Shown here: piece by piece, positions 18,738 through 61,649 of the stretch
Position numbering within the stretch: the stretch's first letter is position 1
Layout of the letters: every line of letters begins with the position of its first letter
Assembly (NCBI RefSeq): GCF_003171515.1
Contig: NC_089393.1
Coordinates: 496,001 to 560,000 of the forward strand
Direction: 5' to 3'
DNA from: Pyrenophora tritici-repentis
Taxonomy: Eukaryota > Ascomycota > Dothideomycetes > Pleosporales > Pleosporaceae
Length of the DNA stretch: 64,000 bases
Translations under genes and position numbers: made by a program
Notes under the pieces: generated by a model
What the model was told of the DNA's origin: nothing
Database searches by the model: none
The model's input: the letters and a program-made list of their open reading frames with translations, nothing else

Positions 18738-20532
18738 TCAACCACATTTGGCGCTCTCATTGTTCCCCATCATCGTCTTGCTCGTAGTTTTGATGATGCT
18801 GATGACCATGACCGTGCATCCAAACGCCACAACTCCGCCTGCAAGATACGTCTTGCTGCTCTTCTGGCTCAGTTTGATATAACAAAGAGGCGGCAGGATG
18901 AACGCCAATGCGCACGCAGAAGTAGCGCCGAAAAGTTCGAAGACGACACCGAGATCGCAGGTGAGGAGGGATAGGGTAAGCGCGGTGACGACGAGCGAGG
19001 TGGTGAAGATGAGATGGCGGTTGGGGTTGTAAGGTTCATCAGGGAACCAGTAGTTGTTCATTACTTCTCGACACACAAAGGCTTCAAGGGGGAGGGTGGT
19101 GAGCATGTTGAGGCCGAAGAAGAGGCGTGCAATGTTGACCATGAGATTGTCATCTGGGAAGTTGTTAAGCACATTGCCTAGCGTCTTGTCTCCAAAGGTC
19201 AAGTAACCTGAGAGAGCCATGACGAGACATGCGACCAGCGAGATGCTGGTGCTGTAATGTGTTACGCGCGAGAAGCGGTCGATGGTGGGTTTGCGCAGCG
19301 AGCCGTAGATGAGCAGGCTGTTGTGATGGCAGACGAAAGCAAAGGATATTACGCCTATGGCTTCGAATATGCCGGAGTTTATAACGAGCGAGCCACGGAG
19401 TTGGCCTTTCGATTCTGGGGGTACGCGGAATGCTTGGGTCACGACTGTGATGATGATGACGATCATACTGACAAGTGCCAGGCCACTGGCTTTGGCGAGC
19501 TGCTTCGTGTTAGCTCATGCAGTGCTGAGATTCCAGGTGGCATTACTTTGGAAATGTCACGGTAGAGTGACAAGGGAAAGGATATGCCGAGAATAAGCAA
19601 TATCATCACAGCCCTTCTGTTAGCGAGGAGCCAAAGAAAGGGCATGTCATCCAACGAGGGGAAGAATGAGTTCAGAACTCTTGGTATGGTGTCGCCGACA
19701 ATAACACAAAAGGCCACCATGCCACCAAAGGCACTACACACTGTCAATACACCTCTTTCCAATTGTGTCACGGTGAACATACAATAGCCATTGGGCCAAA
19801 GATATTGCTATCAGTCCCGACTTCCCAAAGCAGTGTTGTACCGTGGCCTGGAACGAATCTGTTCCGCTGAGCTTCGAGTTTATGACAATGAGCCGTATTG
19901 TCCAGTCTACCACGATGGTGAGGCCGATGAGAAGCGCGGTGCCTGTTATGAGCCCTGCGTTACGAATTGCATATGGCTGACCAATGATACCTGCGCCTCT
20001 GCTTCGTATTAGTCTCTGACATCTCATATTTGCTATACTTCAAGCCTTACATGATGCTGTTTGCCATATTCATGAAAGCGCTTCGCATACCGCTGCGTGG
20101 CCGCGCGTTCTCCAAATGGTCTTCTGGATTGAACGACTCATTCGCAACCGTAACACTGGGCGCCTCAATGCCGGTAAGCAACGGCAGTCTTTGCACTCTT
20201 TCATGGCCGTCCGGGTCATCCAGGTAGTTGTCGCCTTCCAGCTCCAACCAGTCGCCAGCATTATTCCCATTTCCATTTATGGATCTCCTCGGCTCTTCGA
20301 AGCGCACTCGATTCGGCGTCCTCGGTGCGCCATCAGGCCGCGGCTGTGCAAACGACGATTGGCGCTTGATGCCACCATTTGGACGTGAATCCGGGGGTAC
20401 TGGAGATTCGGAAGCAGTGCGCGATGATTTAGAAGATGGCGACAGGTTCCGTGGACTCGTCTTCTGTTCGTGTTCAGGTTCCGAGTCGCTGTCTGAAGGA
20501 TGCTCATGCAGGAGCTTCTGGCTTTCGCTCAT
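18738..20532 (-). CDS. Vacuolar-type amino-acid transporter (AVT/AAAP family)
   Basis: Four exons: 20532-20051, 19998-19783, 19733-19547, 19499-18738, with introns of 52, 49 and 47 bp, give 548 aa. The N-terminal 150 residues are a Ser/Pro/Glu-rich cytosolic tail (MSESQKLLHEHPSDSDSEP). The transporter core (PF01490) starts at the first splice with NSIIGAGIIGQPYAIRNAG, and continues with AQWLFAFGGMVAFCVIVGDTIPRVL and FVCHHNSLLIYGSL. About eleven hydrophobic segments follow. The family moves neutral amino acids with protons, often at the vacuole; the closest yeast relatives appear to be the Avt proteins with acidic N-terminal tails. Substrate is not predictable. All three splice joins rebuild conserved motifs, so the gene model is strong. 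Confidence 0.93.
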
Positions 20533-21129
20533 CGTGGCATTGTCGAGATTTAAGGAGGCGTTGACGGCGAGGGTAGCCGTGACGGTGTCATTCGCGACTT
20601 CTAAGATCGGACTTTAGACCCCTGTAACTACGCTAGATCAAATTTGTTCTGGCGCGCTTCATCGCTCCCGACTGCGAAACGTGGGGTGAGCCCCGTCGGC
20701 ATCACAAAATGCGCCCAGGAAAAATCACATGCACGTGCTTGTCTTTGGAACTTGCATGTTTGGGTGTATTACTATCCATGGGTAGATGTTTTTATATCGT
20801 TCATATTTGGAATCATTGATTATACACGTTGAGAAAAAGCAAGCACTCTGCAGTCAGCTCACGTCGTCGTCAGCCAGAGCTGAGGCTATGAATTGTATTC
20901 TAGTAACCAGTGCGCTTTACCGTTTAAAGATTGATGGTTTTTTAGTAGATGCATCGCTGAGAGGACGATAGTGGCATTGCATTCCGAAACTGCTTCTCGG
21001 CGATAATTGTTCCGCCTATTGGTTCCAGGTAGACGAGGACGTAAAGCATGGAAATTGAGAGCGGAGTCACTCTAGACAGTGCAATCAACACATTGCGGCG
21101 TTGTTTTGAAATTGAAAGTTCCATTCTAG
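20533..21129. other. Intergenic spacer
   Basis: Transporter promoter on the left and the 3' flank of GTPase 1 on the right. Only short ORFs. Confidence 0.5.
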
Positions 21130-22307
21130 CTACATCATCACGCATGGCTGATTAGCCATTTGCCGAAGATACCTTTCCTTCAACTGTTTCTGCACCACTA
21201 TCCTCTGCTTCTCCAAATCCAATGCATGAGCCTCGTGTGCAAGTTTCAAGCTTTCCTGCTGCCTCTTCTCGTACTCTTCAAAACGTTTCCTCGTCTCCTC
21301 GATCATCTGCTCGGAGCTGAGTCGGAGACTGGCCATCTCCTGATACTGCTTAGTGAGCTTCTCTTGATATTCCTTTCTTTCCAGTTCGCGGATCTCTTTA
21401 TCCTCTTTGCTTTGCTTCTCTCGCGCTTCTTTTACCTCCCTTTCCAAGTCTTTCAGCTTTTTCTCGTAATGCTTGATAAGGTGTTCCACTGTCGAGGCTA
21501 GCTCTCCGCCTGCGCCTGTGTCAACCAGATCTTTTCCCTGGTCGACCATTTCGCGTTGGATATCGAGTGTGACTGGCCGCTTCCTGCCTCTAAGATAATT
21601 GATGATTTTGAGCGCTGATTCTTTGCCCTTGTCGTGGCGATAAACTTTACTGCCGTGATCTATCATCCTCTTCCAAAGCTGAGGTTCACTTTTCAGTTGC
21701 TTTTCCCTCTCCTTCGCTGCTTGCTCGCCTGCTTGGTCCCACATGGTCGTCGCTAGGACTACGCTGGCGAGAGTTTCCTCGCCGCATAATTTCTGAAACA
21801 TTTTGAGGTTCTTGATGCCGCTGCCACCCACTCGAAAGTCAGATATCCTCTGGAGGTAGATTATACCCGCGAGCTTCACGTTCGACATGTGCGCTTTACT
21901 AAGCCAAATGGCAACCTCTCGTAGGATTTCAGAATCAGACCGGTACGTATCGTCGAAGCCTGGTGTATCAACCAGGTATATATTGGTGCCATCTTCGGCC
22001 TTGTAAGTCGCTACCTGTACTGCTGTTGTGCCTTGATATAGTCAGATCGGAACACATGTAGTGTGAGTGATGCTACTCACATGAATCTAAGCCATGTCCA
22101 ACCTCAAGTTTTTCCTCTGCAAATAGATTGACAAATGTTGTCTTTCCGCACCCAGTGATACCCATCACGGCGATTATGATGTCGTCGGGCCTTTGGAACA
22201 CGGTTAGTGTACGATTTCATCGACCCTAGAAAGACATACTTCAAATTTGGGAGACGCAGCTCCTCGCGATGAGGGCTGTCCACCCTACTTCCTCTATTCG
22301 CTATCAT
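21130..22307 (-). CDS. AIG1-like P-loop GTPase 1 with C-terminal CaaX box
   Basis: Exons 22307-22240, 22190-22081 and 22031-21130 give 359 aa. Introns of 49 bp each sit just before the P-loop (phase 2) and inside a Cys codon (phase 1). The G domain runs from about 25 to 215: G1 GITGCGKTT, G3 LVDTPGFDDT, G4-like position TTMWDQ. Residues about 235-345 are a long charged coiled coil (KKLKDLEREVKEAREKQ and on). The protein ends CVMM, a good CaaX farnesylation signal, so it is probably membrane-attached. The fold resembles AIG1/GIMAP-type septin-like GTPases, which in other lineages act in immunity; the role here is unknown. Two paralogues follow. Confidence 0.85.
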
Positions 22308-23021
22308 ATTTGCGTGCCGAAAGGAAGACTTTATAGTATAATGATTTGATTGAAGAAAAATTTGAGTCCTTGTATAGCTTCAGCCTTGTGAAGCAGGCGC
22401 GAGGGTTATATCGATATTGCAAAGCAAGGCAGAAAGGCAGCATTCTACTGCCTGGGCTATGCGAGCTGTAGGTGCAAGTACAGGCGCCATGCATACAGCC
22501 ACACCGCGCTGTGACCAACAGTGCGCTCCCAAAGCACCTTGCGATATCATCCGCCTGCTCATGCAAGTCGCCGGGTTAGTAATTGGGTAAGGCTTACGGG
22601 GAGGCCCATTTCGAAGGTCAGACGGCGTCATGACCACTCCACCATATGTATTGCTATTAGGCAACCATTCTGAAGGAGCTGACCGGCGAACGCCAGCTCA
22701 TTGACTGATACTACAGTTTGTAATGTGCATCGCCCTAGGTGGGGGCAGTGTATGCACCTCTCTGCGCCGGGAAGTGACAGATACGGATATTGTTCCCGTA
22801 GCTTCCAGCCAGTCAAAGCTAGTGACACTACACCATTGACTATTGCGCTATGATACATGCAAAGCCACCATTACAAACTGAGTGGATACGAGGTTTGAGA
22901 CAAACATTGTTTTGCTTTACATACAATGTTCGAAAATGGGCACTGGGCGATGTATCTAGTAACGGTGGAAATTTATTAAATCCATTAACTTCACTTAGTA
23001 ATCGATTGTCACTGTAATTGG
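22308..23021. other. Spacer between GTPase 1 and GTPase 2
   Basis: Presumed GTPase 1 promoter. TATAAAG lies only 22 bp upstream of its ATG (22329-22335), which is unusually close. No gene is seen. Confidence 0.45.
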
Positions 23022-24924
23022 CTATCTTGTGTAGTTCCGACTGCGCGAGATCACTACATCGTACTGGCTGTCATGATATGAACCAGATTGAAGGGAAGGT
23101 TGCCAGCTAGATGCACGTGCTGGATCGTCGTATTTTCGTGAGAGGGAGCTAACACACTGAACTGGATTCCGTTTCAGCCCAGAAGGATCCACAGTGACTG
23201 GACCGGGCAGTGGGTGGACCTGCCCACTTGGAAAGCCAGGTGTTACAGGCGTATAAGTTGGTGTTGGTCTTTGTGCCGGATATGTCGCATATCGTGGGTT
23301 CTCAAGTCCACCTGCGTCATACATAGGCAGATAGGGTTGATCGTACTCCTCACAGTACGGACTGGGACTTTCAGAATGATGATAAGTATCGAAGGGCTGT
23401 ATGTCTTGCTCTTCGAGAAAAGTGACATGTTTTGAGTGCATCCTGTTGCTTTGCCGATTTCTCGATTGACTTCGTCTCCTTGTGAGCTTTGTAACAGACT
23501 TTTTAGATGTCTTTGTATCCAGTGGCATTGACTCTGTACGACGGAAGGCTTCCCGCACATGTTTTGGTGCAGATCCGAAATAAGCAAGCATTTTCATGTA
23601 ATGTTCCTGTTGAGGGACTCTCCATCCTTTCGACTTGTCGCGTTGTCTCTGATCTTCAAGGGCTTTCTTGGCTGCTTCAAGCTTCTTGGTACGGTCTTCC
23701 AATTCCTCTAGTTCCTCCTCCTGCGCACGTCTTTCCTTGAGGCGTTCCCGGTTCTCCTTTTCTAGGGTATAGACCTTTTGCTGGAGCTCGTGTAACATGC
23801 GCGCTGACGGCGCATCTGAGATACTGTCTCTCATCATACTATCATACTTTCTTGCATAGAATGCTGCTTGTTCGTTGTGTATGTCTTCAAGAGTAACCGA
23901 AAGGCTACCCTTCTCGGCCTCCAGTCTCTCTACAACGGCTGCGCATTCTCTGACCTGCTCTGAAAATTCGCTCCTGAGATCTTCATCATCTTGGAACTCT
24001 TCTGCGCTCTCTTCTAACTCTTTCTTCTGCATCTCATATCTCTTTCGGACGTTTTCCAATTCACCTTCCAAGTACTGCCCTGCTGTGGATTCCTCCAGTT
24101 TGGTGGTCACGCTGCGCTTCATTTCTTGTTGTAGCTGCAAAGATATGTCTCTTTGCTTGTTTTCAAGCTGTTCAACAATGTTACGGGCGCTTTGTTCATT
24201 AGAGTGCCTCTCCATCATGGCACCAGCTCCCACTAAAGCGCCGAAGAACTCAGGCCTTTCCCTCAACGTCTTCTCACGTATCGTCGCAGCTTCATTTGAT
24301 TCTGGAGACTGGAGCTGATCCCACATAGTCGTAACAATTGTGACATGCTGGAAGCACTGTTCACCACAGATCTTTTCGAAAATACGCAGGCTTTTTAGTG
24401 AAGATCCTGACATTCGCACGTCAGTTATCCGGTGGACGTATATCAATCCGCCTATGGTGAAGGCTTTCCGAGGGCCATCGCAGACGATGCAGAGAAATGC
24501 AGCAATTTTCTTGAACACACCGGCATAGTCTGTGCTAGTATCGTCAAAGCCCGGTGTGTCGATGAGATGGATCACTTTCCCATTAGGTAACCGGTACTCG
24601 TAGGGTATGACATCCGCAGTACCTAGTGATGTAAGACCATGAAATCAACGACTAATTCTACAAAACCATACAAGAGTTCAGCGAATGTCCGACCTCGGCC
24701 TCTTGATGAGTGAGTTGTGAGATGAATGTGCTTTTACCGGCCCCCGTAAGCCCCATGACGAGAAATCCGATACCTCTAATAGCTTAGTTAGACAGGAGAT
24801 CAGTTGCGCAAGATATTTCGACATACTGAAGAGACGATGCATTGTTGTGGTGGCTGAGAGGCTGCCGAGATAGATGTACATCCATACTTTCCCGTCCAAC
24901 AACGGCGTTACTCAGGGAACTCAT
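23022..24924 (-). CDS. AIG1-like P-loop GTPase 2 with long coiled coil and Pro/Tyr-rich tail
   Basis: Exons 24924-24827, 24775-24672 and 24622-23022 give 600 aa. The introns (51 and 49 bp) are at the same places and phases as in GTPase 1. G domain: G1 GLTGAGKST, G3 LIDTPGFDDTSTDY, G4-like TTMWDQ. A coiled coil of about 160 residues (RYEMQKKELEESAEEF, ENRERLKERRAQEEELEELEDRTKKLEAAKK) is followed by a basic KLTRRRSQSRNRQSNR patch. The tail of about 150 residues is rich in Pro, Tyr and Ser and ends SRSRNYTR. There is no CaaX, so unlike its neighbours it is not expected to be prenylated. It is divergent from GTPase 3, with a 442-bp shared promoter. Confidence 0.85.
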
Positions 24925-25366
24925 TTCGGACGCGTTCAAACAACTGTTGCTTTGAAAGATAGAGTCGCGAACTGGTTGCGCATCTGCGCAAGTTGCCGAA
25001 ATTACACACCTCCACGGAGACGCTAGAGTAACTAGGATACGTCGTCTATGCCTGTTTGTAGTGCTGACTGTAGCCTAACAAGCGAGTGCGTGAGTGCGCA
25101 GTGCATAGATTAGGCACAAGCCACAAATTCCGCCTCCAAACCGTTGTGGAACCATCCGGTCAAGCAGCTCTGACGTGTAAGTTGCTGATTGGTGATGCCT
25201 CAGCCACGGGTGGGAAGCCAGATTCAGCCTTATCCCGGGGTGTATGCAGCTGTTCTAAACGATCTTCAGCCGCGCCACTTGATGTTACATAGCAATAGCA
25301 AAAAACGACTGGACACTATTCCAACCAAATCATCGAACACGTTGCGAGTCCAGCCCATACGCTTTG
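24925..25366. promoter_or_regulatory. Divergent promoter region of GTPase 2 and GTPase 3
   Basis: A 442-bp head-to-head interval between the ATG codons of two paralogous GTPases. I saw no clear TATA or named operator. The layout suggests the two may be co-expressed. Confidence 0.4.
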
Positions 25367-26744
25367 ATGAACAACACTCCAGCAAATCATGGCTCACCAG
25401 CCATCAGGTATGTTTATTTTGAATCTAGCATGAGATAAAAGCTCATGAGAGTCGGTTAGTCCGGATGATATATTCATAGCGGTTATGGGAATGACTGGTG
25501 CTGGAAAGTCAACCTTCATTGAGTACTGCACCAAACCACCAGAGCGCCTTTCAGATGATGGATTATTCTCTTGTAAGATTGGAAATCCGGAAAACATTCC
25601 AACCAACGTTAGTTGACATGAGTTAGGCACCAGTCGCGTATCGATTCATACCACTGTGATCCAAGGTCGTACTGTCCACCTGTTGGACACACCTGGGTTC
25701 AATGATAGTCGGCAGTCTGATGGCGAAGTATTACAGGAATTAGCATTCTGGTTGACAGCTGCCTATGAAAGGGACATCAAACTTAGCGGCATCGTCTATC
25801 TTCATTGTATCACAAACATTCGTCTCCAGGGCACCGCCGCGCGAGCTTTAGAAGCTTTCAAGAAAATGTGTGGCAAGGAAGCATACAAAGGGGTGGTCCT
25901 CGCAACAACCATGTGGAACATGGTTCCCGTGAAAGATATCGCCAAAGCCGGAATAAGACATAAGGAGTTTTACGAAAAGATTCGCCATGATGTTATCCAG
26001 GAAGGTGGTAGACTAGTCAGACTATCAGCTGGCGAGATGGACGCAATGAAGATACTCCATCATATTGTACAAAAGGACCAAAGGTTCACACTCGCCTTCC
26101 AGCGGGAGTTAGTAGATGAAGGTCGACTCATCTATGAGACGGAAGCCGGAAACGTCCTCTTTGATCATCTGAACGAACGCTTTCAGTCATTACAAACCAT
26201 GACAGATGAGGCTCATACACGGATGGATGCGATTGTCAACACCGGGCGATTGGAAGCCTTGGATCAGCTCAGCGATGCTGCTTCTGTGATGGCTGGAGAT
26301 ATGCGATTGGTAGACGAGGAAATTAAGCGCACAAAAGTAGCATTCGGCGACATTCAGAAGACGTGGGAAGATATCATCCATCGAGACGATGAAGGTCTCG
26401 TCCTAACCGCACAACGTCTAGAGCGGCAATTAGCGCTAGAGAGCAGCCGCAATGAAGACGATGAGAGTGCTGCAACCGCAAGCGAAGAAAGACCAACATC
26501 CTCACTGAGCGAAGCTTCTGGAAACACCGTCAACAGTACTTGTTCTAGCTGCACATCCCAAGAGTCCATGAAGTTGAGGTTGCAGGAGCTCAATAGAGAA
26601 CGGCGAGCGCTTGCGATTCGGATGGGACAAAGGCTCAGCGGAAGATACACGGCTCACTCACGAGGAACAACGACAATAGGCGTCATAGGCACCACTTTGG
26701 CTGCTGGTCAGCTCATTGCAGCATTAGCCTGCGTGGTGATGTGA
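25367..26744 (+). CDS. AIG1-like P-loop GTPase 3 with hydrophobic tail and CaaX box
   Basis: Exons 25367-25407, 25460-25572 and 25627-26744 give 423 aa. The ATG at 25,367 is chosen because only this frame splices in phase to the P-loop; the ATG 22 bases later does not. Intron positions and phases match the two paralogues. G1 GMTGAGKST, G3 LLDTPGFNDS. The G4-like position reads TTMWN, so the usual Asp for guanine is Asn here and base specificity may differ. Helical middle, then a Ser/Thr-rich acidic linker. The last 25 residues are hydrophobic (GVIGTTLAAGQLIAALA) and end CVVM, a CaaX box of the N-Ras type. Membrane attachment is likely; function is unknown. Confidence 0.85.
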
Positions 26745-27839: not shown

Positions 27840-28198
27840 ATGCATCTCTCAAGCCTCCTCATTACCGCCATCGCTGGCTTTGCTTTTGCCGCAGAATCGT
27901 CAAAGTATGACCTGCTTTTCCTATCTCCTCCAAGCTGCTCAATCATCTTCCTAGTCTTACTACCGTTAACAAACTCAACAGCCCTGTAGTCCCCGGGTCC
28001 TCCGTTATGGCTTCCATGGCTTCTTCCATGAAATCTGAGGCATCGAAGATCACATCGACTGCTCCGAAGACTGTGACGGGGACAGAGACAGCGACTACCA
28101 CCAAGGATAGCAAGGCAACGAATGTAGCTGTTGCTATGGGTGTTGGAGATGCTGGTATGATGGCTGCGGCGTTGGGGGTTGCTGCCTGGATGTTGTAG
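27840..28198 (+). CDS. Small secreted, probably GPI-anchored protein
   Basis: Exons 27840-27904 and 27982-28198 around a 77-bp intron (GTATGA...GTTAAC...CAACAG) give 93 aa. The N-terminal signal peptide is MHLSSLLITAIAGFAFA. The middle is rich in Ser, Thr, Lys and Met (SSVMASMASSMKSEASKITS), a likely O-glycosylation zone. The last 22 residues are hydrophobic (VAVAMGVGDAGMMAAALGVAAW), as in a GPI attachment signal, with a candidate omega site near SKATN. There are no cysteines, so it is not a classical cysteine-rich effector. A cell-wall or membrane-surface role is inferred from layout. Confidence 0.75.
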
Positions 28199-43646: not shown

Positions 43647-44967
43647 AAGACCGCCAAGAATGAGGCTGAAGCAAAGAAGGAAGCCGAGGAAATGTGTTTT
43701 ACTACTGACTGTCAATCTAGTCGTCTTCGTTCTCACTATCCTCGATATCGCTGTTCCCCTCAGCTTGGGGCTTTCCATACCAGGCCCGGAGACACTCGCA
43801 CGCTTCTATAATATCTGCCTTCAGCCTACCACGGCGATCGACGATAGTAAGCTTCGCGCTACTAAAAAGACGTTCGCATTCATCCGACATAGGCGAGATC
43901 GCAAACATGTCTAGAGCGAAGCGAGCGAGATCTCGTTGGGAGTCGTAGCGAGATAGCCAGTACGCAATAGCCTCATTGCAACCTGCCTCTTCGTTATGAA
44001 GCCGGTCAGTAGAGATGTATTGTTCATACAAATCAGTTGTAGAAACTGGAGCGTCTATTCGAATGCGCTTATGTTCCCGCTGGCGATCAAATGCTGGGTC
44101 AGGATCTCTCTCCTTCCTGGCTGGTGGTGGCAGCATCTCGACAGGGTACCTTCCCTTATACTCTGTCTCCCAGAGATGCTTCACCGCTAATTGTGCGTTT
44201 TCAAACCACCTCTTCTTCTCTTCGTCGCCATGAAGAACCCACTCTTGCCTGAACCATCCCCACTTGCGATATGGATCAAGGATTTGAGCCGCATAATATG
44301 CCGGTGGAAGGTCAGTATCTTCAGGGAATCGATTTTGCCAATTCAGCTGCTGATTGTTATAGTACTCAACGCACTTTAACCAAGCAGCATCAGCGCAGCC
44401 TTGAAGGTACTTCCATGTAAAGTTGTTATCGTCCTCAGTGTGGATGTCGTGGTAGTGATCCTTCGTCTCGCTTATCTCCCGGAGAAGGCAGTCCAAAGTT
44501 GAAAACCAGTCCGCAAGTGACGTCTTCTTACCTTCAGAAAGCAAAGTTGCAGCATAGAAGTCTTTGAGAGCGAGTTCAATCTTTTCAAGCTCAAACCAGT
44601 GCTGTCCATCAAGCTTAAAGTTCGCGATCCCTACGGAGCCCTTTCCAGGTACATGACGAGCCGAGAAGAGCTCTAAACGTTCTCGAACATTTAATGCACG
44701 TGTAATCGAATAAAACCATGAGTTCCAGCGGGTCGAGTTGTTCTGGATAAGCTCAAGCCCGTCGAATTGCGAAAGATCTCCGCCGATAATAATTGTAGCA
44801 AACTCCTCACGCCGTTGTGGAGTAAGCCTGATGTATCGCACCAGGTTGTGAAGACGACCCAAACATCCGAACTTCTTCCAGAGCTCTTCCACCTTCGTAT
44901 AGTCGCCACGTTGATGATGCTTCTCCAGCTTCGCAAGATACTTCTCACAGTTTCGCCCCATAAGGAA

Positions 44968-45125
44968 CAGAGATGTCAACAAGCAAGTCAAGCTGGCTTG
45001 ATTCTTATCGATTGCAGATCACAGACCATTCTCTGGGACGTGCCACTGTGCACGAGCCTCTATATTGTCTGTGATCTGCAATCGATAAGAATCAAGCCAG
45101 CTTGACTTGCTTGTTGACATCTCTG
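44968..45125. mobile_element. MITE-1: 158-bp foldback element in the hAT transposase
   Basis: Two perfect 59-bp inverted arms starting CAGAGATGTC surround a 40-bp loop. It is flanked by the 8-bp duplication ATAAGGAA (44960-44967 and 45126-45133). TIR start and duplication size fit a non-autonomous hAT. It has no coding capacity. Confidence 0.93.
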
Positions 45126-46253: not shown

Positions 46254-48258
46254 TGGGTGATGACGTGGGGATAGGAGATGGAGTAAGAGACGTTAAATCT
46301 AGTCTTATAATATTCGATGGGGACGGTGAGGTTGGTGTTGAAGGCTCCATAACAATAGTATATAAGTAGGTTGTTAAGGACTTGATTGTTCTATGTAAGT
46401 AGAAGACTTACCTTGATCTTAATGACTCATATTGTGCTAAATTTTCTGGCTAGATTAGTCTAAGATCTAGTCACGTGGACCTATTTATAGCCGGACCGGT
46501 CCGATCATCTAGACCGGTCCGACCACGGTCTCAAAAAATCGCCAGACCAGACCAAGTCTTGGCGGTCTAGACCAGACCAAGACCAAGTCAGACCAGACCA
46601 TTCCGATCACTGGGCGCCAGCGACATGATCAGGCGCTGGCTGCATCGCTGGATGGTTGGAGATTGCGTCAAGATAGCCTCTTTGCCGTGGTCCTGGTAGC
46701 CTTGGATAACCAGGCGGGATTTCTCATAGGGCTTGGTTGTCTTTCCCTTGACCTCACGTACCAGGCGTGACTTGAAGATCCGGATCTTGCTGTGTAGCCT
46801 CTCGTCGTATTGCTCAAACTTGAAGACTCCACGACCTACGAGGTCGCTGATCTCTTGGTCATCAGATGCTTCAAAGGGTGCGCCTGGTGTTGTGATAACT
46901 CCATCGTTACGTAGCTTGATAGCTAGCTCAAGATCGTCCTGCTCCTTCTTGGTGATGTACGCGTGCCCCTTCCGCTTGTTCTTTGATCCTGGAGGGCGGC
47001 CTCTCTTGCGTGGTTGCACTGCCGGTGGTACTGCTACCGGCTCATGCGGCTCATTCAGCGCGTGTGGCGCATCGGGGTCGCTCCAAAGATGGTCCGGTCT
47101 GTAGTATGGCTTGACGACAGTAGATCTGAATGTTGTTGGACCATTGACCATATCGACAGTAACGTTGTGGCCGTCTATACTGGCGATCTTGTACGGGCCA
47201 TTCCAGCCATCACTCTCTCTCCATACTAAGACTTCACTCTGGAGTGGGAGCGCGAGCATGTCTGCAGTGGCTGGTCCATTGCGGGTGTTCAAGGCGTCTG
47301 CAACTTGGCGCTCTGCAGTAAGCTTGCGCAGGGCTTTCGTCGCCTTTTGAATAGCCTCGCTGCGCCTAACCATTGAAGGTGCCGGCGGCGACTCTGTAGT
47401 CATTCGTGGGTATGCTCCAAAGACTAGTAGAGTCGGGACTAGACCATCGGGTCCAGCGGTGTCATTGACAGCTTTCACGGCCATTTGAAGGATCGCTTCA
47501 TCAGACATATCGTCTTGGAGCTCGTCATGGAGTATATCCCATGCTCGGCGAAGTGGTGCGTGGTATCTCTCAGTCTTGCCCACCGACCAGTGAGCCTCTG
47601 TAGGCACCTGCTTGCATGTAACTCCCATGATCTTTGCCTCAGCACGGAACTCTGCGCTTGCAAAGTTGGTGCCTGCATCATGTGTGATGATGTCTGGTGG
47701 TCCTTGATACGTGTCGATCCATAGCATCCGCAGTGCCTGCCATGTCTCCTTAGCTGAGATAGCGCTGAGGAATTTTGCGCCTTGGAAAGCAGTTGAAGAA
47801 TCAACCACATGTAATACTGGCTTGCCGCTGAGATACATCACATCCACCAGGATCTCATAGTTGAAGTGGTGATCATCCTTCAGAGTGAATTTGAATCGGC
47901 GCGGCGCGGAGCTGTGGAGCTGGCAGTGGTGGCAGAATTCAGTGACCTCCTCTAGGGTTCTCTCTTCAAAGTCGTTATGGCCAGCGTCCTTTAAGAGTTT
48001 AACTAGTCGCGTGACAGCTGGGTGTCCAAACCGGCGATGGAGCCGTCTCAGCTCTGTCTCAGTGAGAAACACCGTTGCTCTCTCTCTCTTGTTGAGATGG
48101 AACCATGGGTGTCCCCATTTGCGTAGAACAGGGATGCGTATCTTGTCCTGAACAAGCTCATCTGTAGTGTTATTGAAGTAGACTTTTAAGCGGTCCATAT
48201 CTGCAAGGCACAGCAAGAACGGTGTAGGCGCCTCGAGCACTTCGAAGTTGATCTTCCC

Positions 48259-48420
48259 TAGACTCCGCAACAATCAATTCAATCCGGTCACTCTCCTAGA
48301 CCCACTTACCTATCTAGGTAGGGCTTAAACTCCTATAGGTAACTACTAGACTTAAAGCGGTAATCAATCAATCCAATCTGAACCTTCTAGGACCCACTTA
48401 ATTGATTGTTGCGGACTGTG
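48259..48420 (-). mobile_element. MITE-2 copy B, 162 bp, in Copia-1 gag-pol
   Basis: The same 162-bp element as copy A in the opposite orientation, with the 8-bp duplication ATCTTCCC (48251-48258 and 48421-48428). It splits the Copia-1 polyprotein between the protease region and the integrase, within the codons for ..IGKI.. . Confidence 0.92.
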
Positions 48421-50624
48421 ATCTTCCCAATCTCTGTAGAGACCTGCACTGTTCCAATAGACGCTGTAGCCTCGCCTTTTCCGAATTTGATAGATGCTTT
48501 CCCAGCTGTAGATGTGTCTATCTTAACTGTTGGATCTTCTCGTGTGAGTGCAAGATACTGCTCTTTGCCAACTGTAGATACGTTGGCAGCGCCTGTATCC
48601 GGGAGGATACCTTGGTACAGAGATCGTGTATAGCGGTCCTCGAGCAGAAACTGCGACGCTGGTGCTGACGGCGCGCCTCGACCGTATATGTCGTCGCCAG
48701 AAATGTGATGCAAGAACGCCTGGTCTGCAAGGCATTGCTCCTTGAAGAACTGCTGCTCAAAGTATTGTTGTTCGCCAGTGCCGTCGTCATTGTCGTCATC
48801 CTCGCAGTCTTCCTCCTCTTTCCAGCCTCTCTGGTTATACTGGCTGGTGTGCTCAATTCCTTCGTACTCTGCAAGGTGTACTGAGAAGTCCTTGGGTGGT
48901 GGCGCACCTGTAAAATACAGCATAGAGAAGAACTGCGCACGGGCAGTCTTGCGCTCTTCGTCTGTGTGGTTTGTGGACCAGCATCCTTCCTTCTGGCAGA
49001 CAAAGCACTTCTTCTTCCAGCGTGGCTTGAATCCACGGCTACTGTCAAAGCTTTGTTCGCCTTTTTGAAATGCGCCTCTAGTTCCGCCTCGGGACCCACC
49101 TCGGTTTCTTCCATTGCTGTTGTACCGGCGGTCTAAGTAGTACTGGTTACCTTGGTCTACCTCTGTGAAGTTGACAGAGGTAGTCATAGCGAGTGAGTTT
49201 TCAATCGAAGATCGTAGATCTCCAAATAGGACCTCGCATTCTAGAGACGGCCTGTAGAGCGCCATTGCGAACTCTTTAACGCCTCGACATGCTGTGATTA
49301 CTGTGGTCCGGAGCGCATATTCTCCCATATACTGCTGCCCAAGCGCCCTCTGGCATAACTGGAGTTTGTCTAGCATAATGTCAAGGACCTCATGGAGTGT
49401 CTTGTCAGGATTCTCCCTATGGACTTTAGCAAAGGATGTCGTCGTCCAGTCTGCATAGTAGTGACTGTGGTTGACGTCCGTGTCGAAGTGGTTCTTAAGC
49501 TTCGTGTATACAGTCAAGAATGTATCTGTCCGCTGATCAACGAAGTGGAGGTAGTAGTCTTGCGCACGGCCTTCCAGGATCCGTGGAAAGACTGCATGGA
49601 ATTGGTCTGGCTGGATGTCTGCGTGATAGCAGATGCTGTAGAAGATCTTCAATTTGTCGTCTAGGAGGTCGTACGGCTTCCCTGTGTATTTCTTCTCACG
49701 ATCCCACATCTTTGTAAAGACATTGATTGTCTTCGGATCTAGTTTCCCATTATTAAACTCGATTGGGGGAACTGCCTTGTATGGGTCTGTATCCCCTGAA
49801 GGTATAATTGGAGGGACGCTCGGTCCCTTTGGGCGTTGTGGGTATGCTGGCGTGTATTCGCGGAATCTGTCAAAGTTGTTGTACGTTAAGCGAGGTTGAT
49901 GACTTTGCTGTCGCTGGTCCGCCTGGTGTCGCCCGTCTGCCTGTGGTGTCTGTTCAATTGTCTCTACAAGCGGATCTGCTAGTTGTTGGCTGACCTGGGT
50001 ACGGGTGCGGGTCTCGTCTTGGACATCGGTTTGTTGATCCTCTGCGTCTTGGTCTCTTGCCCTTGCAGAGGTTTGGCTCTGCGCTCGACTCGCTGTCCCT
50101 ACGTTTGTAGGTTGTACCGATCCCGTAGTGTGTCGTCCTAGTAGCCTCCGCTGTTGCAGCATATACGCCGCTGACCGCTCGTCGAAGGCAGTAGATTGGA
50201 ACTGATCGTCCGGCCACTTCGGACAATCCTCCTTGTGCAGTAGCTTGGCCACAGCTTCGCTTGGCGGCATGTTAACACGGCCAGTGTACACGCCCTTAAA
50301 GCGGAGGATCCGCTTTAGTTCCTTAGTATACGTTGCATGCGCGCGCATAAACATAGCTTCAGTCCAGCCTTCAAAGTCCTGACAGAACTCACCAAAGAGC
50401 TCTGCGTCTGCTGTTGGCCGGTCTGTGTAGTCTGCGATCGCACGCGCAATGTACGTTGTTGCTGCAGTTCCGTCTACCTCGTCGTCTGGGGCTTCGATCT
50501 CATCGTCCCAGATCTTTGGATCAATGTGACGCCACTCTCTTGCCTTTAGGTTTGTGGTCCCTAGCAACTCCTCTCGTGTGAGTGTACAGCCTCCATTACT
50601 GCTTGCTGTTTCGCTCGCCATTTG

Positions 50625-50740
50625 TTGTTGACGCGTGCCGTGCTGGCTGCGTTCGCCAGGGATACGTCGGTTGTCGTAGATTGTTGACGTGTGCCTTGCT
50701 GGCTGCGTTCGCCAGGGACTCGTCGGTAGTCGTGGGTTGT
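50625..50740. repeat. 56-bp direct duplication in the Copia-1 leader
   Basis: TTGTTGACGCGTGCCGTGC and TTGTTGACGTGTGCCTTGC start two copies of about 56 bp (from 50,625 and 50,681), just upstream of the gag ATG on the minus strand. Confidence 0.8.
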
Positions 50741-50977
50741 ACACGGGTCAATGGCGCGACCAAGTGGGGGTCGGTGCGTGTATGGACTGCGTCTGGGAAC
50801 GCTCTGATACGGCTGGAACGGTCGGTCTCAAGCCGGATGAGACGCCTGATACAGCTAACAGTGAACTTAGCACAGATAACTCCGCCGCTGATGTAGGCGA
50901 TCTAGGGAACGCGCGGGGTTATAGGATCTGTCTCTTCTAACCTAACTGTCTGTGACTGCCATGCAATCACTGATCAG

Positions 50978-51165
50978 TGTTGGTAGGCCTTGTACGATCG
51001 TACGGGTGAATAACAACAACGAGGTTCTTCTGGTGACTGGTATTGGTATTGATCTTCTACGAACATAGCTGCTACGAAGGTACACCTAAGCTCTGCGCAA
51101 GGTGGGCCGAAGTCGGGCCGAAGTGTCAAGCAGCCGACGTCTCTACCGATACTCACGATTCGACA
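50978..51165 (-). repeat. Copia-1 5' LTR
   Basis: 188 bp, read as identical to the 3' LTR. On the element strand it is followed by CTGATCAGTGATTGCATGG, where the primer site should lie. CTGATCAG is self-complementary. No tRNA match is recognised. Confidence 0.93.
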
Positions 51166-51178
51166 TTATATTCACTTG

Positions 51179-51413
51179 TGTTAGAACAAGGTCTCCTCTG
51201 GTGGTATGACTACCATAGGCGACCGAGTAGAGGTACGAAAGGTAACCCTGTATTGGATTGAACTTCACTAAGAGCTATTGTTCTATCTACTTGTTGTTAT
51301 GATGATCTTAGGACGTACATGACAGATCATCATTCCGCGTCGGTCCTTCTGCTCGGGCTTACTCCACGAACCTCACCTCGCCGACCTGGACTGAACCTAA
51401 CATATTCTTAACA
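51179..51413 (-). repeat. Copia-2 3' LTR
   Basis: 235 bp, TG...CA, identical by eye to the 5' copy at 56333-56567. Confidence 0.95.
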
Positions 51414-51423
51414 CTCCCCTCAG
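51414..51423 (-). promoter_or_regulatory. Copia-2 polypurine tract
   Basis: TGAGGGGAG directly abuts the 3' LTR on the element strand and overlaps the gag-pol stop codon TGA (51420-51422). It primes plus-strand DNA synthesis. Confidence 0.8.
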
Positions 51424-54400
51424 GGCAGGTCCGGTCCAAGGACAACTCCTAATTGGTTCTTGAATCTCTCGAATGCGACTCGCTGCAATGGCTTTGTCAT
51501 TCCATCAGCCACCATGTCTGCAGTTGGAACGTAGGCCACATCGAGTTTGCCTTGTTCTGCTAGGTCTCGGATAAAATGATAACAGACGTCGATGTGCTTT
51601 GATCTTTCGTGAAGGTGAGGGTTCTTTGTAAGTGCAATGGCACCCTGGTTGTCTCCTAGCATCTGGACCTTGTTGGTGTCTTTTCCAATGTACTTTGGGA
51701 ACCCAAGATCTCTAAACATTTGAGCAATCCACTGGCCTTGCTTGCAGCATGTTGATAGTGCGATGTATTCAGATTCGCAGCTTGACGTTGCAACAGACCG
51801 TTGCTTCTTGCTAGACCATGATATTGGACCTCCGTAGAACATTGCAGTGCTCCCTGAAACGCTCTTTCGGTCTACCATGTCGCTTGCCCAGTCAGCATCA
51901 GAGTAGATGACAAATTGCGAGTGTACTCCCCCTGGTCCGTAGCGTAGCTTCAATGTCACTGTCGACCTTAGATATCGTAGCAGGTTCTTCAACGCATGGC
52001 CATGGTGTTCTGCTGGATCGCTCATGTATTGGCTTAGCTTTCCGAGGGTGAATGCAATGTCTGGACGTGTAAGAACCATAGCAAACATAAGGCTCCCTAT
52101 CACTTGCTGGTATTCAGTGATGTCGATTCGGGTGTCGTTGTCAGTGGCTGGCCTAAATGAAGTGTAATCTGCAGATGGAATCTTCTTGTCTCTGTGTTGT
52201 TTGCTAGACATTCCAAACTTGTCAAGTACTGCGTGTAGGTACTGCTCTTGATCGAGGTAGATTGTGCGGCGCTTTCTGTCTCGCGTAACTCGTACTCCAA
52301 GGATCTTATGAATCTCCCCAGGTTCTTGGTGTTGAATCTTCCAGAAAGCTTCTCGTAGAACCAATCAATTTGAGCTCGATCTTTTGCAGCAGCAGCAATG
52401 TCATCAACGTAGACGAGGATACGGAGTTGTTTTTCTTTGTGGATAAACATGCACGGGTCTGCGAGGCTTTGTACGAATCCCCATGCCAGAAGTTCTTTCT
52501 TTATCAACAAGTTCCAGTCGCGAGCAGCCTGTTTGAGTCCGTATAAGCTGCGGAGAACTCTAAGGACGTATCCTTTTTTGACTTCTACTCCTTGGGGTTG
52601 CTTAAGAAAGATCTCTTCCTTCAAGTGCGACTCTGTGAATGCATTCTTAATGTCAAAGTGGAAACATTCCAGGTTTTCCGCTGCGACAGTGGCCATAAAC
52701 AGACGTAAGGTGTCCATGCGGACTGTCGGGGCAAAAGTCTCGTTGTAGTCTGTTCCGTGTGCTTGCGTAAAACCTCTTGCCACAAGGCGTGCCTTAAACC
52801 TCTCAACAGTCCCGTCGAGATTCGTTTTGACTGTAAAAACCCACTTTGAATCAACCATGTTCGCGTCTTTTGGCTTTGGAACTTCCTCCCAGGTTCGATT
52901 CTCTATTAACGCGATTATCTCTTCAAGTATTGCTGCTTTCCATTGCTTTCCATACTTTGGGTCGTTGATAGCTTGCTCGTGTGTCTGGGGGATCTGGATT
53001 CCTGCGATCTCGGTTGCTGCGAAAGCCTTCTCAGATAGTCGTGTTTGCTCTTCTGTAAGGCCAACTTGGGCTAGCATAGCTTTAACGATCTTGCTAAATC
53101 TCTCGTCCTCAACAATCTCTTCGTTAGACCTCTTCCGTTTGGCTTGTCTAGTGAAGTATCGTGGAATCTCCTTTTCTCGTACAGACTGGGTACACGGTTC
53201 TTCGGGCCCCTCTTCGTTCACAAGATTAGGAACCCGCTCATCAGATGGTGCAGTAGGAGGAATAGTAGTTAGCCTCCTTGGTCTTCCTCTGTGACGCTTC
53301 ACTGGTTCATGAGTTAGCTCTGCCGAAGATGGTTCCATTAGGTTCTCGGAAACTGGTTCTATTGGTTCTGCAGGAGATGGTTCCATTGGTTCGGTAGGAG
53401 ATGGTTCCATTGGTTCTGCAGGAGATGGTTCCATTCGTTCGGTAGGAGTTGGTTCCATTCGTTCGGCAGGAGATAATTCTAGATCCTTCCTAGGTCTTCC
53501 TCTTGGTTTTCGGTCTGGCATCGTATTCTGCGTTCCTTGTGGTCCAGCTGGTATGTTTCGCAGTCGTAGTTCAACTTTCCCTCCAGGGGTGTATTCGTCC
53601 ACTGACAATCGGCTTGTCCTTGAGGTGTATCCAAGCTCTGGCGAATAGAACTTGAACTGCTTATTTGTTGTCTCAGAATATCCCATAAATACTCCAATTC
53701 TGCCACGGTCCACGAGCTTGTCATGTCGTTGGTCTGCTGGAATCGTTTTAGGGTTGATGTACGAATAGCATTTGCTCCCCCATACACGGATGTGGTCAAT
53801 GGATGGTTTCGTTCCTGTGAATGCCTCTTCAGGACTGACTTGCTTTCCATTGATCATAGGTCCTGTGTTTGTACGGTTGCGTAGGTATGCGTCTGCTTCG
53901 ACAGCTTCATCCCAAAACTCAATTGGTAAACCAGCGTCTTTCAACATTGCTCTCATATCAGCTTCAGCAGTTTGGATGTTTCGCTCGGCTGGTCCATTCT
54001 GGTGTGAGGAAGCAATTGTTGTAGGCTGAATTTCCACGCCTTGTGTAACTCTCCATTCCTCAGCTTGCTGTAGAAGTTCTGGTGCATTGTCGGTTCCAGC
54101 AGCTTTGACTTTCTCGCCAGTTTGATGTTCTACAAAGGTCTTCCAGATTCGGAGTTCCCGTTGTGCGTCTCCCTTTTTCTTCAGCGGGATAACCCAGTTT
54201 TTCCGCGTGTAGCTATCAATAATTTGGAGGAACCACCTGTTTCCTCGTAGAGATGTTGGAAAGGGTCCAGCAATGTCAAACTGTACTAAGGCTAGCTTCG
54301 TGGCCTTGTGCTCTCTTAGCTGCTTAGGGATGCTGTTCTTCATCTTTGTCAGGGAACACACTTCGCAGATTTCAATCTTCTCTGGAACTTGAATCTTCTT

Positions 54401-55972
54401 CTGGAGAGTTGTAACTTCGTGGAGTTTGGCAATCTTTGTAGGTCCTAGGTGTGCGAAACGTCTGTGATACAGCAGGTATCTCTCCTTTTCATTAACCTTA
54501 AGCTCGCTCTTAACTGGTGTATGGGGTTCCGTGCCTAGGAATGCTGTCTCGTGGTATCCATCGGCAATGTGTGACACTACGTAGAGGCCGTCGTCCATAG
54601 TTGCTTTAATAATGATCTCCTTTCCTAGTTTGAAGCATAGTACGTGTGAATTGAAACGACCCTTCAGGCCTGCTGCGCAAATTCTTCTCCCTGATAACAA
54701 ATTGACTCCAAGGTTAGGTACAAGCAGTACTTCTGACAACCATGTCGACGATCCGTCTTTACACACCACTTGAGCTTCTCCTTTCCAGTCTGCATATAAT
54801 TCTCCCCCTCCAACCCGAACTAGTCTTCGCTTGATCTTGATCATTCGTCTAAACAATGAGGGTTGGTCAGACATGTGGGAGGAGGCGCCAGTGTCGGCAG
54901 CCCAAGTAGATGGAGAGGCCTTACCGACAATGTCTTTTGAGAGACGGCATGTCTCAATTTCCTCGGGTTCAGAGTCTGAGGTCTCGGATAATTCATCTGA
55001 CTCTGAATTGACTTCTTCGGCTCCATATGCTTTGCCAGTCTTTTTGTGAGAATTCCTTTGCTTGAGTGTCTTAATAGGCGGCTTAGATGATTTCTTAGCG
55101 TCGTATTCCTCAAGGAGCTTTCGAGCTCTCTCACGTCTTGGACAGTCTCGTACGCCATGGGCTCCGTCACAAAGGAAGCATTGGACCATAAACTTAGTAC
55201 CAGATTCGGAGTCAGACGATAGTGGTGAGCTCTTGTGATTTCGGCGCTTGTAAGGCGGAACATACTTCTCCGTCTTCCGGAATGCTGGGAGAGCTTTTTC
55301 GTCGGCGTCTTGCTGGTCTCGAACCTCCTTCTCTTCCAGAAACTTAAGTTTCTGTTCAACCGTAAGGTTAAGTTGGGCGTTTAAGGTGTCAATCGTAGTC
55401 TTAAATTCTTTCGGGAGTGATCTAATAAGAACGAGTAGTAGTGCAGAGTCCTTGTAAGCTCCGTTGGTGTCAGCGTCTGCTGCTACGAGTTTGCGTCGGT
55501 ATTCCTTTAGCTTTTCCCATGATCCAACAATTGTGTTCCCAGGATTGAATGTGAACGTTTGAATTCTGGTCATGTAAATGTTGGCGGTTGTGGCGTCAGT
55601 TTGGGTGTACTTCTTTTGTAGGTAGGCCCAGAACTGGAAGGCAGTGTCGTATTCGTCAATAAGGGCTTGGTCATCTTCAGTAAGCGACCGAAACAAGAGA
55701 TCGATTGCAGTGGCTTCATCTTCTAGGTACTTGTCTCTTTTTTCAATGTTGACGCGGATCTTAGTATGCTTGTCTGCTTCAGCAATTTCCAACTCTTCCA
55801 TAGCCTCCGTTAGTTCACCGGCTATTGCTATTTGGCAGTGCTGTACCAGGTTTTTCTCGCAGACATAGAAGACTTTCTTCCCCTTAAGCTTGACCTTGTT
55901 TCGGCGGAACCAAGTATCGTGGTTTTCAGCTGTAAGTTGGGGAATCTTCCATTCTTCCTTCTCTACAGCCAT
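51420..55972 (-). pseudogene. Copia-2 gag-pol polyprotein with one frameshift
   Basis: The frame runs 55972-52316 and then continues one base out of register to 51420. One extra C in the run at 52316-52319 would give 1,518 open codons (1,517 aa). Gag: retrotransposon gag domain, then zinc knuckle CFLCDGAHGVRDC. Protease WAADTGASSH. Integrase: HRRFAH...CEVC finger and D-D-E core (QFDIAGPF, GTDNAPELL, NGPAERNIQ). A Pro-Glu linker with imperfect EPSPAEPM repeats is framed by two AT-hooks (KPRGRPRKD, HRGRPRR). RT: WVFTVKTN, FDIKNAF and the catalytic YVDDI. RNase H: YSDADWASD, SSCESEYIAL, DNQGAIAL. All catalytic motifs look intact apart from the shift. Confidence 0.92.
53330..53470 (-). repeat. 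Tandem repeat in the Copia-2 integrase-RT linker
   Basis: Units of about 24-27 bp (GGTTCCATTGGTTCTGCAGG-like on the + strand) encode alternating EPSPAEPM / EPSPTEPM octamers. The array is in frame and low complexity. Confidence 0.8.
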
Positions 55973-56040
55973 CTTGTGTGTTTTGAGTTGGTGAGACTAT
56001 TATGCGAGCAAGGTACGTGGTATGATGCTAAGAGTGTAGG

Positions 56041-61228: not shown

Positions 61229-61649
61229 GATGGATCTCAAGGGTTGGCGCTCTCTCGGACAGTAGATTTAATCGAGAAGAATATTTGTGGTGTTGGAATG
61301 AGCCAAACGACGTCTGCTTTCACGAAACAAGAACCATAAATCAACCAACTACCTAGGCCTGATGTGGGTTGACCGTCCCCGCATCCGCCACGCCAAAGGC
61401 CGCGACGAGATAGAGTGTGCGCAACATGATAGGGAACGGGCGGTCGCCTTTGAGATTTCAAACATGTCTTCTCCGTATCGCGTGAATAGTAAAAGACGCG
61501 TAGTCAGAAGCATGGGTTGTAGTTCTTAATATTGATGATTGATGTTGCATGTGATAGTGCGAGAGGTACCTGTAGCAGCAGGGATGAGCTCCCACCCCGC
61601 CCTGGGCTGGGCTGTGAGCGACAGGTCGAGCAAGCAGCTCGCGACCATC
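61229..61649. other. Divergent spacer
   Basis: Head-to-head promoter region of the DUF6604 gene (-) and the nucleotidyltransferase gene (+). No defined motif is seen. Confidence 0.45.

What the first reader, a model, noticed from the sequence alone, without database searches (positions are those of the whole stretch)
21130..26744. Cluster of three AIG1-like GTPases, two with CaaX boxes
Three paralogues lie together, sharing a P-loop G domain, a coiled-coil follow-up and two introns at the same positions and phases (phase 2 before the P-loop, phase 1 inside a Cys codon). GTPases 1 and 3 end in CVMM and CVVM, classical prenylation signals. GTPase 2 instead has a 150-residue Pro/Tyr-rich tail. 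A prenylated, coiled-coil, septin-like GTPase family recalls animal GIMAP and other immune GTPases, so a membrane-linked defence or self-recognition role is conceivable. I know of no described fungal system of this form.
Basis: partly seen in the sequence, partly recalled or inferred. Interest (0 to 1): 0.75.

Follow-up and report, generated by a model that had tools for sequence, protein, structure and literature searches.

The report
Conserved fungal farnesyl-tagged GTPase gene trio
Three neighbouring genes in this fungus encode related GTP-binding switch proteins, two ending in a lipid-attachment signal and one without it, and the same arrangement recurs in other fungi, so it looks like an old, almost unstudied set of proteins that may work at membranes.

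Summary
Three paralogous P-loop GTPase genes lie at 21130-26744 of what is very probably Pyrenophora tritici-repentis, with two introns at the same places and phases. CaaX is a family trait: Cys is at -4 in 110 of the 120 listed relatives of gene 1, 104 of them ending in Met, with 0-2 Cys at the other 14 of the last 15 positions. A G-domain tree of rows I chose gives three supported clades, one per gene, each with its own tail: coiled coil plus CaaX (gene 1), hydrophobic stretch plus CaaX (gene 3), long tail without CaaX (gene 2). CaaX/no-CaaX changes once on 66 rows, after seven distant rows were dropped, three of which would add changes. The genes stay neighbours in other fungi, Hypocreales included. 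The predicted fold is a GTPase domain plus coiled coil; GIMAP7 and Toc34 lead one structure search but not clearly the other. Most likely a membrane GTPase set working like GIMAPs, with two anchored members and one soluble partner. A defence role is untested. The one functional lead, TBRG-1 of Trichoderma virens, could not be compared by sequence. New variant of a known kind.

The parts
21130..22307 (-). GTPase gene 1: exons 22240-22307, 22081-22190, 21130-22031; 359 aa; G domain, coiled coil, C-terminal CVMM
   Evidence: Pfam MMR_HSR1 34.5 bits, cut-off 21.9; P0002 of Bipolaris sorokiniana 77% identical
21130..21144 (-). Codons of the CaaX box CVMM and the stop of gene 1
   Evidence: sequence; Cys at -4 in 110 of 120 listed relatives
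23022..24924 (-). GTPase gene 2: exons 24827-24924, 24672-24775, 23022-24622; 600 aa; G domain, coiled-coil-like part, long Pro/Tyr/Ser-rich tail, no CaaX
   Evidence: MMR_HSR1 39.0 and AIG1 28.2 bits, both over cut-off; 100% over 95% to a P. tritici-repentis record P0237
23523..23543 (-). RRTESMP motif at the start of the gene-2 tail (pattern R[RK]xxSxP)
   Evidence: 26 of 51 gene-2-type proteins carry R[RK]xxSxP against 1.2 on average (at most 4) in 50 shuffles; also 9 of 246 gene-1-type (shuffles 0.8, at most 2) and 0 of 53 gene-3-type
25367..26744 (+). GTPase gene 3: exons 25367-25407, 25460-25572, 25627-26744; 423 aa; G domain, coiled coil, hydrophobic C-terminal stretch, CVVM
   Evidence: MMR_HSR1 27.7 bits, cut-off 21.9; 100% over 95% to a P. 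tritici-repentis record P0121
26673..26744 (+). Hydrophobic segment plus CaaX of gene 3 (TIGVIGTTLAAGQLIAALACVVM and stop)
   Evidence: 51 of 53 gene-3-type proteins have both features; the two without CaaX are P0162 and P0172

Best explanation
The trio is an old set of septin/GIMAP/Toc-like (paraseptin, TRAFAC) GTPases that works at a membrane. Shown from sequence: three paralogue classes with different, class-specific tails, kept as neighbours. Inferred: genes 1 and 3 are farnesylated at C-x-x-M and sit on the cytosolic face of a membrane (gene 3 may also insert its hydrophobic stretch). Gene 2 is the soluble partner with a disordered, possibly phosphorylated tail. GTP drives side-by-side G-domain pairing and the coiled coils extend this into a membrane scaffold; the unanchored partner controls GTP hydrolysis and assembly, as proposed for soluble GIMAP7 with anchored GIMAP2. 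What the scaffold does (development, stress or self-defence) is open.
For: CaaX is frequent in the gene-1 and gene-3 classes and absent from separate gene-2 proteins: C at -4 in 110 of 120, 72 of 120 and 13 of 120 listed hits of the gene-1, gene-3 and gene-2 searches (lists capped at 120 of 713, 132 and 456); by best match to the trio, gene-3 type 51 of 53, gene-2 type 1 of 51, that one being the fused P0239. Three clades on G-domain columns only, bootstrap/SH-aLRT 99/97, 98/97 and 100/100, one change of tail state among 66 chosen rows. Neighbours: of 23 named gene-1 rows among the top 40, 15 share species and contig length with a gene-2- or gene-3-type row and 3 are fused to gene 2. In T. gamsii, T. 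viride and Hirsutella, adjacent tags are one member of the CaaX clade and one of the no-CaaX clade. Fold: best Foldseek matches GIMAP7 (E 7e-10) and Toc34 (1e-7). An Arg just after the fourth strand is kept (R in 93 of 95, 47 of 50 and 21 of 21 rows); paraseptins are said to use an arginine finger (PMC11238149, passage). GIMAP7 can promote GTP hydrolysis by GIMAP2, and membrane scaffolds are proposed (PMC8201404, passages).
Confidence: 0.45

Rival explanations
1. Signalling switches of fungal development and secondary metabolism, like TBRG-1 ('Big Ras GTPase') of Trichoderma virens, with no immune role.
For: TBRG-1 is described as an atypical GTPase; of its ten relatives some are annotated as P-loop proteins and one as GTPase IMAP family, no G4 was found among them, and a Trp replaces the Ala of G5; it affects conidiation, gliotoxin genes and mycoparasitism (PMC8146680, section 12 and passages). 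Trichoderma has members of both the CaaX and the no-CaaX clade, and this family has TTxW and a weak G4.
Against: The review predicts a mainly nuclear place for BRG proteins, whereas two of the trio carry CaaX.
Confidence: 0.25
2. A self-defence or allorecognition module: membrane GTPases that sense damage or non-self and trigger or block cell death, a fungal counterpart of GIMAP/GBP/IRG immunity.
For: Clustered paralogues with membrane-type tails; the same G domain joined to WD40 repeats (P0348, P0184), to a kinase domain (P0172) or behind a sub-threshold TPR match (P0008), layouts recalled from fungal NLR-like proteins; gene-2 tail 69% identical to the P. teres protein against 82% for the G domain and coiled coil; a Sordariales orthogroup (OG0000027) with overlapping MMR_HSR1/RsgA/Septin/AIG1/Dynamin_N matches turned up in an NLR survey and was excluded (PMC12258605, passage); that it is this family is inferred.
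Against: The trio has no sensor repeats and no known cell-death domain. WD repeats of P0348 and P0184 are not alike (at most 21% and 11% identity at any period from 38 to 47), unlike the near-identical repeats recalled for HET-E. Disordered tails often evolve faster than domains, so 69 vs 82% proves little. The clusters are kept over long times rather than patchy. MMR_HSR1 was enriched among genes down-regulated in Podospora incompatibility and put to ribosome biogenesis (PMC3689799, passage).
Confidence: 0.15
3. Ordinary tandem duplicates with independent roles; neighbourhood is inertia and there is no joint function.
For: Tandem paralogues are common; all gene-3-clade rows of the tree come from the Dothideomycetes that I sampled, so the trio is not indivisible; 5 of 23 named gene-1 rows showed no partner in the capped lists; a Boeremia assembly has a gene-2-type protein on another contig than its gene-1- and gene-3-like pair (P0269 against P0053, P0172).
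Against: A CaaX/no-CaaX pair is adjacent both in Pleosporales and in Hypocreales, long after duplication, and each class keeps a distinct tail.
Confidence: 0.15

Closest known systems
GIMAP/IAN GTPases (AIG1 family, PF04548)
   Same: G domain followed by a helical/coiled-coil part; clustered paralogues; some members membrane-anchored, others soluble (PMC8201404, passages); best Foldseek match GIMAP7
   Different: Pfam AIG1 passes its cut-off for gene 2 only; CaaX ends instead of, or besides, a hydrophobic anchor; TTxW at G4
Big Ras GTPases, founder TBRG-1 of Trichoderma virens (PMC8146680)
   Same: Fungal, larger than small GTPases, P-loop or 'IMAP' annotation of relatives, G4 not recognisable
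   Different: Described as Ras-like with a predicted nuclear place; no CaaX clade, cluster or tail classes in the passages I saw; sequence not compared
Toc34/Toc33 and septins (paraseptins)
   Same: Similar predicted G domain; conserved Arg after the fourth strand, possibly an arginine finger
   Different: Septin Pfam under cut-off (19.1 vs 26.2 for gene 1, not listed for genes 2 and 3); no chloroplast in a fungus
Ras/Rho farnesylated GTPases
   Same: C-terminal CaaX, here almost always ending in Met
   Different: Different GTPase class, coiled coil between G domain and CaaX, no standard NKxD

Membership tests
AIG1/GIMAP (PF04548) | Pfam AIG1 model above its curated cut-off (27 bits) | tested here: inconclusive
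   gene 2 28.2 (met); gene 1 25.5 and gene 3 18.6 (not met); no match at E<=0.001 in the whole genome read exon by exon
AIG1/GIMAP (PF04548) | P-loop and DTPG (G1, G3) plus the Thr taken as switch-I Thr | tested here: met
   invariant or nearly so in the 95-row alignment A1; S-C-T aligns with S-V-T of GIMAP5
AIG1/GIMAP (PF04548) | Closest fold among solved structures | tested here: inconclusive
   GIMAP7 first by Foldseek; by VIA-align not ahead of Toc33/34, YsxC or pre-60S GTPases
AIG1/GIMAP (PF04548) | Nucleotide-dependent G-domain dimer | not testable with these tools
   needs biochemistry or a solved structure
Septin | Pfam Septin above cut-off (26.2 bits) | tested here: not met
   19.1 bits for gene 1; not listed at E<=1 for genes 2 and 3
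CaaX (farnesylated) proteins | C-terminal C-a-a-X, X favouring farnesyltransferase (Met; recalled) | tested here: met
   genes 1 and 3: CVMM and CVVM; 104 of 110 CaaX ends in the gene-1 set have Met. Gene 2 lacks it
CaaX (farnesylated) proteins | Lipid actually attached | not testable with these tools
   needs metabolic labelling or mass spectrometry
Big Ras GTPase (TBRG-1) | Sequence homology to TBRG-1 | not testable with these tools
   TBRG-1 sequence not held; only described features compared
Big Ras GTPase (TBRG-1) | Poorly conserved G4 | tested here: met
   TTxW in 300 of 350, next residue Asp in 127 of the 300
Fungal NLR | NACHT/NB-ARC domain with C-terminal repeats | tested here: not met
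   neither listed for the three proteins at E<=1; only far-below-cut-off nSTAND6 matches (14.5 and 12.2 bits vs 27.7) for genes 2 and 3

The most novel reading that the evidence does not exclude
A conserved three-part membrane GTPase module of filamentous ascomycetes: one farnesylated member, one farnesylated member with an extra hydrophobic segment, and one soluble regulator with a phospho-tail, assembling on GTP into a scaffold that guards the fungal cell (damage response, mycovirus or non-self), i.e. an independent fungal counterpart of the GIMAP cluster.
Probability: 0.2. Interest if true: 0.85.

Novelty: new variant of a known kind. Interest (0 to 1): 0.6.

Why it matters
A protein family that databases call 'hypothetical', 'G domain-containing protein' or 'P-loop hydrolase' has a kept farnesylation-type tag, three tail classes and a kept gene neighbourhood. 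That turns a pile of hypothetical proteins into a testable membrane system, and gives fungi a possible relative of the GIMAP/Toc/septin switch proteins. It also offers a way to read the isolated TBRG-1 phenotype in Trichoderma, if TBRG-1 belongs here.

Tried and rejected
Fused gene-2/gene-1 proteins: seven public models carry two P-loops (P0239, P0241, P0242, P0243, P0245, P0246, P0247), and others hold parts of both genes. In the window such a fusion could use a GT at 23064 and gene 1's exon 2, an 874-base intron, against 49-54 bases for the six introns seen; junctions differ between species. I take the fusions as annotation artefacts; this is not disproved.

Chance: Cys at the positions -1 to -15 other than -4 is 0-4 of 120 in each of the three hit sets, so the CaaX signal is not composition.

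Rows left out and choices: the quick tree had 74 rows; for the careful tree I dropped seven long or distant rows, P0171, P0173, P0178, P0187, P0191, P0208, P0343. P0187 and P0208 (no CaaX) fell on the gene-3 side of the quick tree and P0171 (no CaaX) on the gene-1 side, so with them the tail state would change more than once. The fused P0239 was in the careful tree but not in the count (66 of 67). Tree rows were my choice, mostly from named assemblies. The 34 contigs were picked because contig lengths agreed; they are not a sample. The count 15 + 3 of 23 uses every named row among the first 40 hits, matched by species and contig length; searches list 120 rows each, so a missing partner is not an absence. 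None of the 24 hits that I recognised by name as basidiomycete ends in CaaX. Of the 13 CaaX rows in the gene-2 search, 11 were checked as gene-2/gene-1 fusions, P0015 differs from the checked P0014 at one place, and P0311 was not checked.

A profile of relatives that lack the P-loop found mostly coiled-coil noise among solved structures. The nine paper searches that ran listed no paper that I recognised as being on this cluster or on CaaX in this family; I judged from listings, and most subscription journals are not in that library. The original TBRG-1 paper was not seen. MMR_HSR1 in the Podospora papers is linked to ribosome biogenesis or GTPase activity of down-regulated genes, not to this family (PMC3689799 and PMC4835503, passages). 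Variation between isolates was not tested: the protein database is clustered at 90% and I found no collection of other fungal genomes among the tools.

Full report
What is there. The window is G000:C4:496001-560000 of a 40.9 Mb genome. Genes 2 and 3 are 100% identical over 95% of their length to records named Pyrenophora tritici-repentis (P0237, P0121). Three genes lie at 21130-26744: genes 1 and 2 head to tail on the minus strand, gene 3 beyond them on the plus strand. Each has three coding exons, a phase-2 intron before the P-loop and a phase-1 intron inside a Cys codon. Pfam sees MMR_HSR1 above cut-off in all three; AIG1 above cut-off only in gene 2. Public models of genes 2 and 3 start differently (P0237, P0121). 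Gene 1 has no near-identical entry among the proteins found (best 78% over its whole length, 80% over 82%, which looks only at proteins of 0.55 to 1.75 times its length), so it may be unannotated in the Pyrenophora proteomes held.

How many in the genome. Searches with a third-exon piece of each gene find the same four places: the trio and one copy on C6 with an in-frame TGA (counts are lower bounds). That copy's last open stretch does not end in CaaX.

The CaaX tags are family features. Of the 120 listed relatives of gene 1 (of 713 found), 110 have Cys at -4 and 104 of these end in Met; the other 14 of the last 15 positions hold 0-2 Cys. For gene 3's search it is 72 of 120 listed (of 132), for gene 2's 13 of 120 (of 456). 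Of those 13, 11 were checked and are models fused to gene 1; P0015 is nearly the same as one of them and P0311 was not checked. Sorted by best match to the trio, gene-3 type has CaaX in 51 of 53, all 51 also with a hydrophobic C-terminal stretch; gene-2 type has CaaX in 1 of 51, the fused P0239; gene-1 type, which here also collects distant relatives, in 137 of 246. None of the 24 hits that I recognised by name as basidiomycete has it.

Three classes, kept apart and kept together. A tree of 67 G domains (240 residues from the P-loop, tails left out; rows of my choice) gives a gene-1 clade (99/97, 25 rows), a gene-2 clade (98/97, 25 rows) and a gene-3 clade (100/100, 15 rows), with two rows outside them and a single change of tail state over the 66 rows counted. 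Seven long or distant rows had been dropped; three of them would add changes. Neighbours: of 23 named rows among the 40 best gene-1 hits, 15 have a gene-2- or gene-3-type row of the same species and contig length, 3 are fused to gene 2, and 5 show no partner in the capped lists. Of 34 contigs picked for holding two or more family members, 13 have serial locus tags on both rows and in all 13 the tags are no more than three apart. In T. gamsii, T. viride and Hirsutella the two neighbours fall in the CaaX clade and the no-CaaX clade, so that pair is older than the split of Dothideomycetes and Sordariomycetes, or it moved as a pair.

Anatomy. A gene-1 relative (P0001) folds with mean pLDDT 90.8 into a G domain followed by long helices to residue 352 and a free CaaX end. 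A gene-3 relative (P0123) folds at 83.1; its last 28 residues are not confident. Foldseek ranks GIMAP7 first, then Toc34; VIA-align puts YsxC, Toc33/34, GIMAP7, GIMAP2 and pre-60S GTPases within about 2 Z units, and by sequence profile GTPase Der scores better than a septin or GIMAP4. G1, the presumed switch Thr and DTPGF are invariant or nearly so. G4 reads TTxW in 300 of 350 proteins, followed by Asp in 127. An Arg after the fourth strand is kept in 93 of 95, 47 of 50 and 21 of 21 rows of the three alignments. Gene 2's tail carries R[RK]xxSxP in 26 of 51 class members against 1.2 expected from shuffles, but not in the Hypocreales partners looked at (P0197, P0217, P0199, P0294, P0331); the pattern recalls basophilic kinase and 14-3-3 sites (recalled, untested).

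Working model. Two anchored GTPases and one soluble one, with coiled coils and a possible arginine finger, most resemble the proposed GIMAP logic: anchored members form GTP scaffolds, a soluble member triggers hydrolysis (PMC8201404, passages; PMC11238149, passage). Shown: genes, tags, classes, neighbourhood. Inferred: prenylation, membrane, dimer, scaffold, partner role. The biological task is open. The best functional lead is TBRG-1 of Trichoderma virens, whose described features fit but whose sequence I could not compare (PMC8146680, section 12 and passages). A defence role has indirect hints only: the G domain with WD40 repeats, a kinase domain or a sub-threshold TPR match in relatives, and a Sordariales orthogroup with the same kind of overlapping Pfam matches that an NLR survey excluded (PMC12258605, passage).

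Verdict. A real, old and nearly unstudied arrangement: a new variant of the septin/AIG1-like GTPases.

Noticed in passing
L002 2862-2923 and 2958-3019 (G000:C6): A 62-base inverted repeat, 98% complementary with a 34-base loop, lies upstream of the fourth GTPase copy.
   Followed up: partly
G000:C6:2302526-2303320 (L002): Fourth paralogue with P-loop and TTMW motif but an in-frame TGA and no CaaX at the end of its last open stretch; looks like a decaying copy.
   Followed up: partly
window 22307-23064: Public models of related species fuse genes 2 and 1 into one double-GTPase protein, most ending in CaaX (P0239, P0242, P0243, P0245, P0246, P0247; P0241 ends otherwise). Likely annotation artefacts, but a read-through isoform is not excluded.
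   Followed up: partly
P0348, P0184, P0172, P0008 (database proteins): The same G domain in front of WD40 repeats (Colletotrichum siamense, Thyridium curvatum) or a kinase domain (Boeremia exigua), and behind a sub-threshold TPR match (Alternaria alternata).
   Followed up: partly
window 43720-45018 and 46591-55996 (-): hAT transposase dimerisation domain and Copia-type retrotransposon domains (RVT_2, gag, integrase-related) to the right of the trio.
   Followed up: no
window 59914-61236 (-): ORF with DUF6604 (E 2e-51), a family of unknown function.
   Followed up: no
window 27840-28198 (+): Probable small protein starting MHLSSLLITAIAGFAFAAESSK, signal-peptide-like start and a hydrophobic end after a possible intron.
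   Followed up: no
window 18741-20613 (-): Amino-acid transporter domain (Aa_trans at 18741-19514) next to gene 1; the ORF at 20050-20613 may hold its N-terminal part (inferred, not tested).
   Followed up: no
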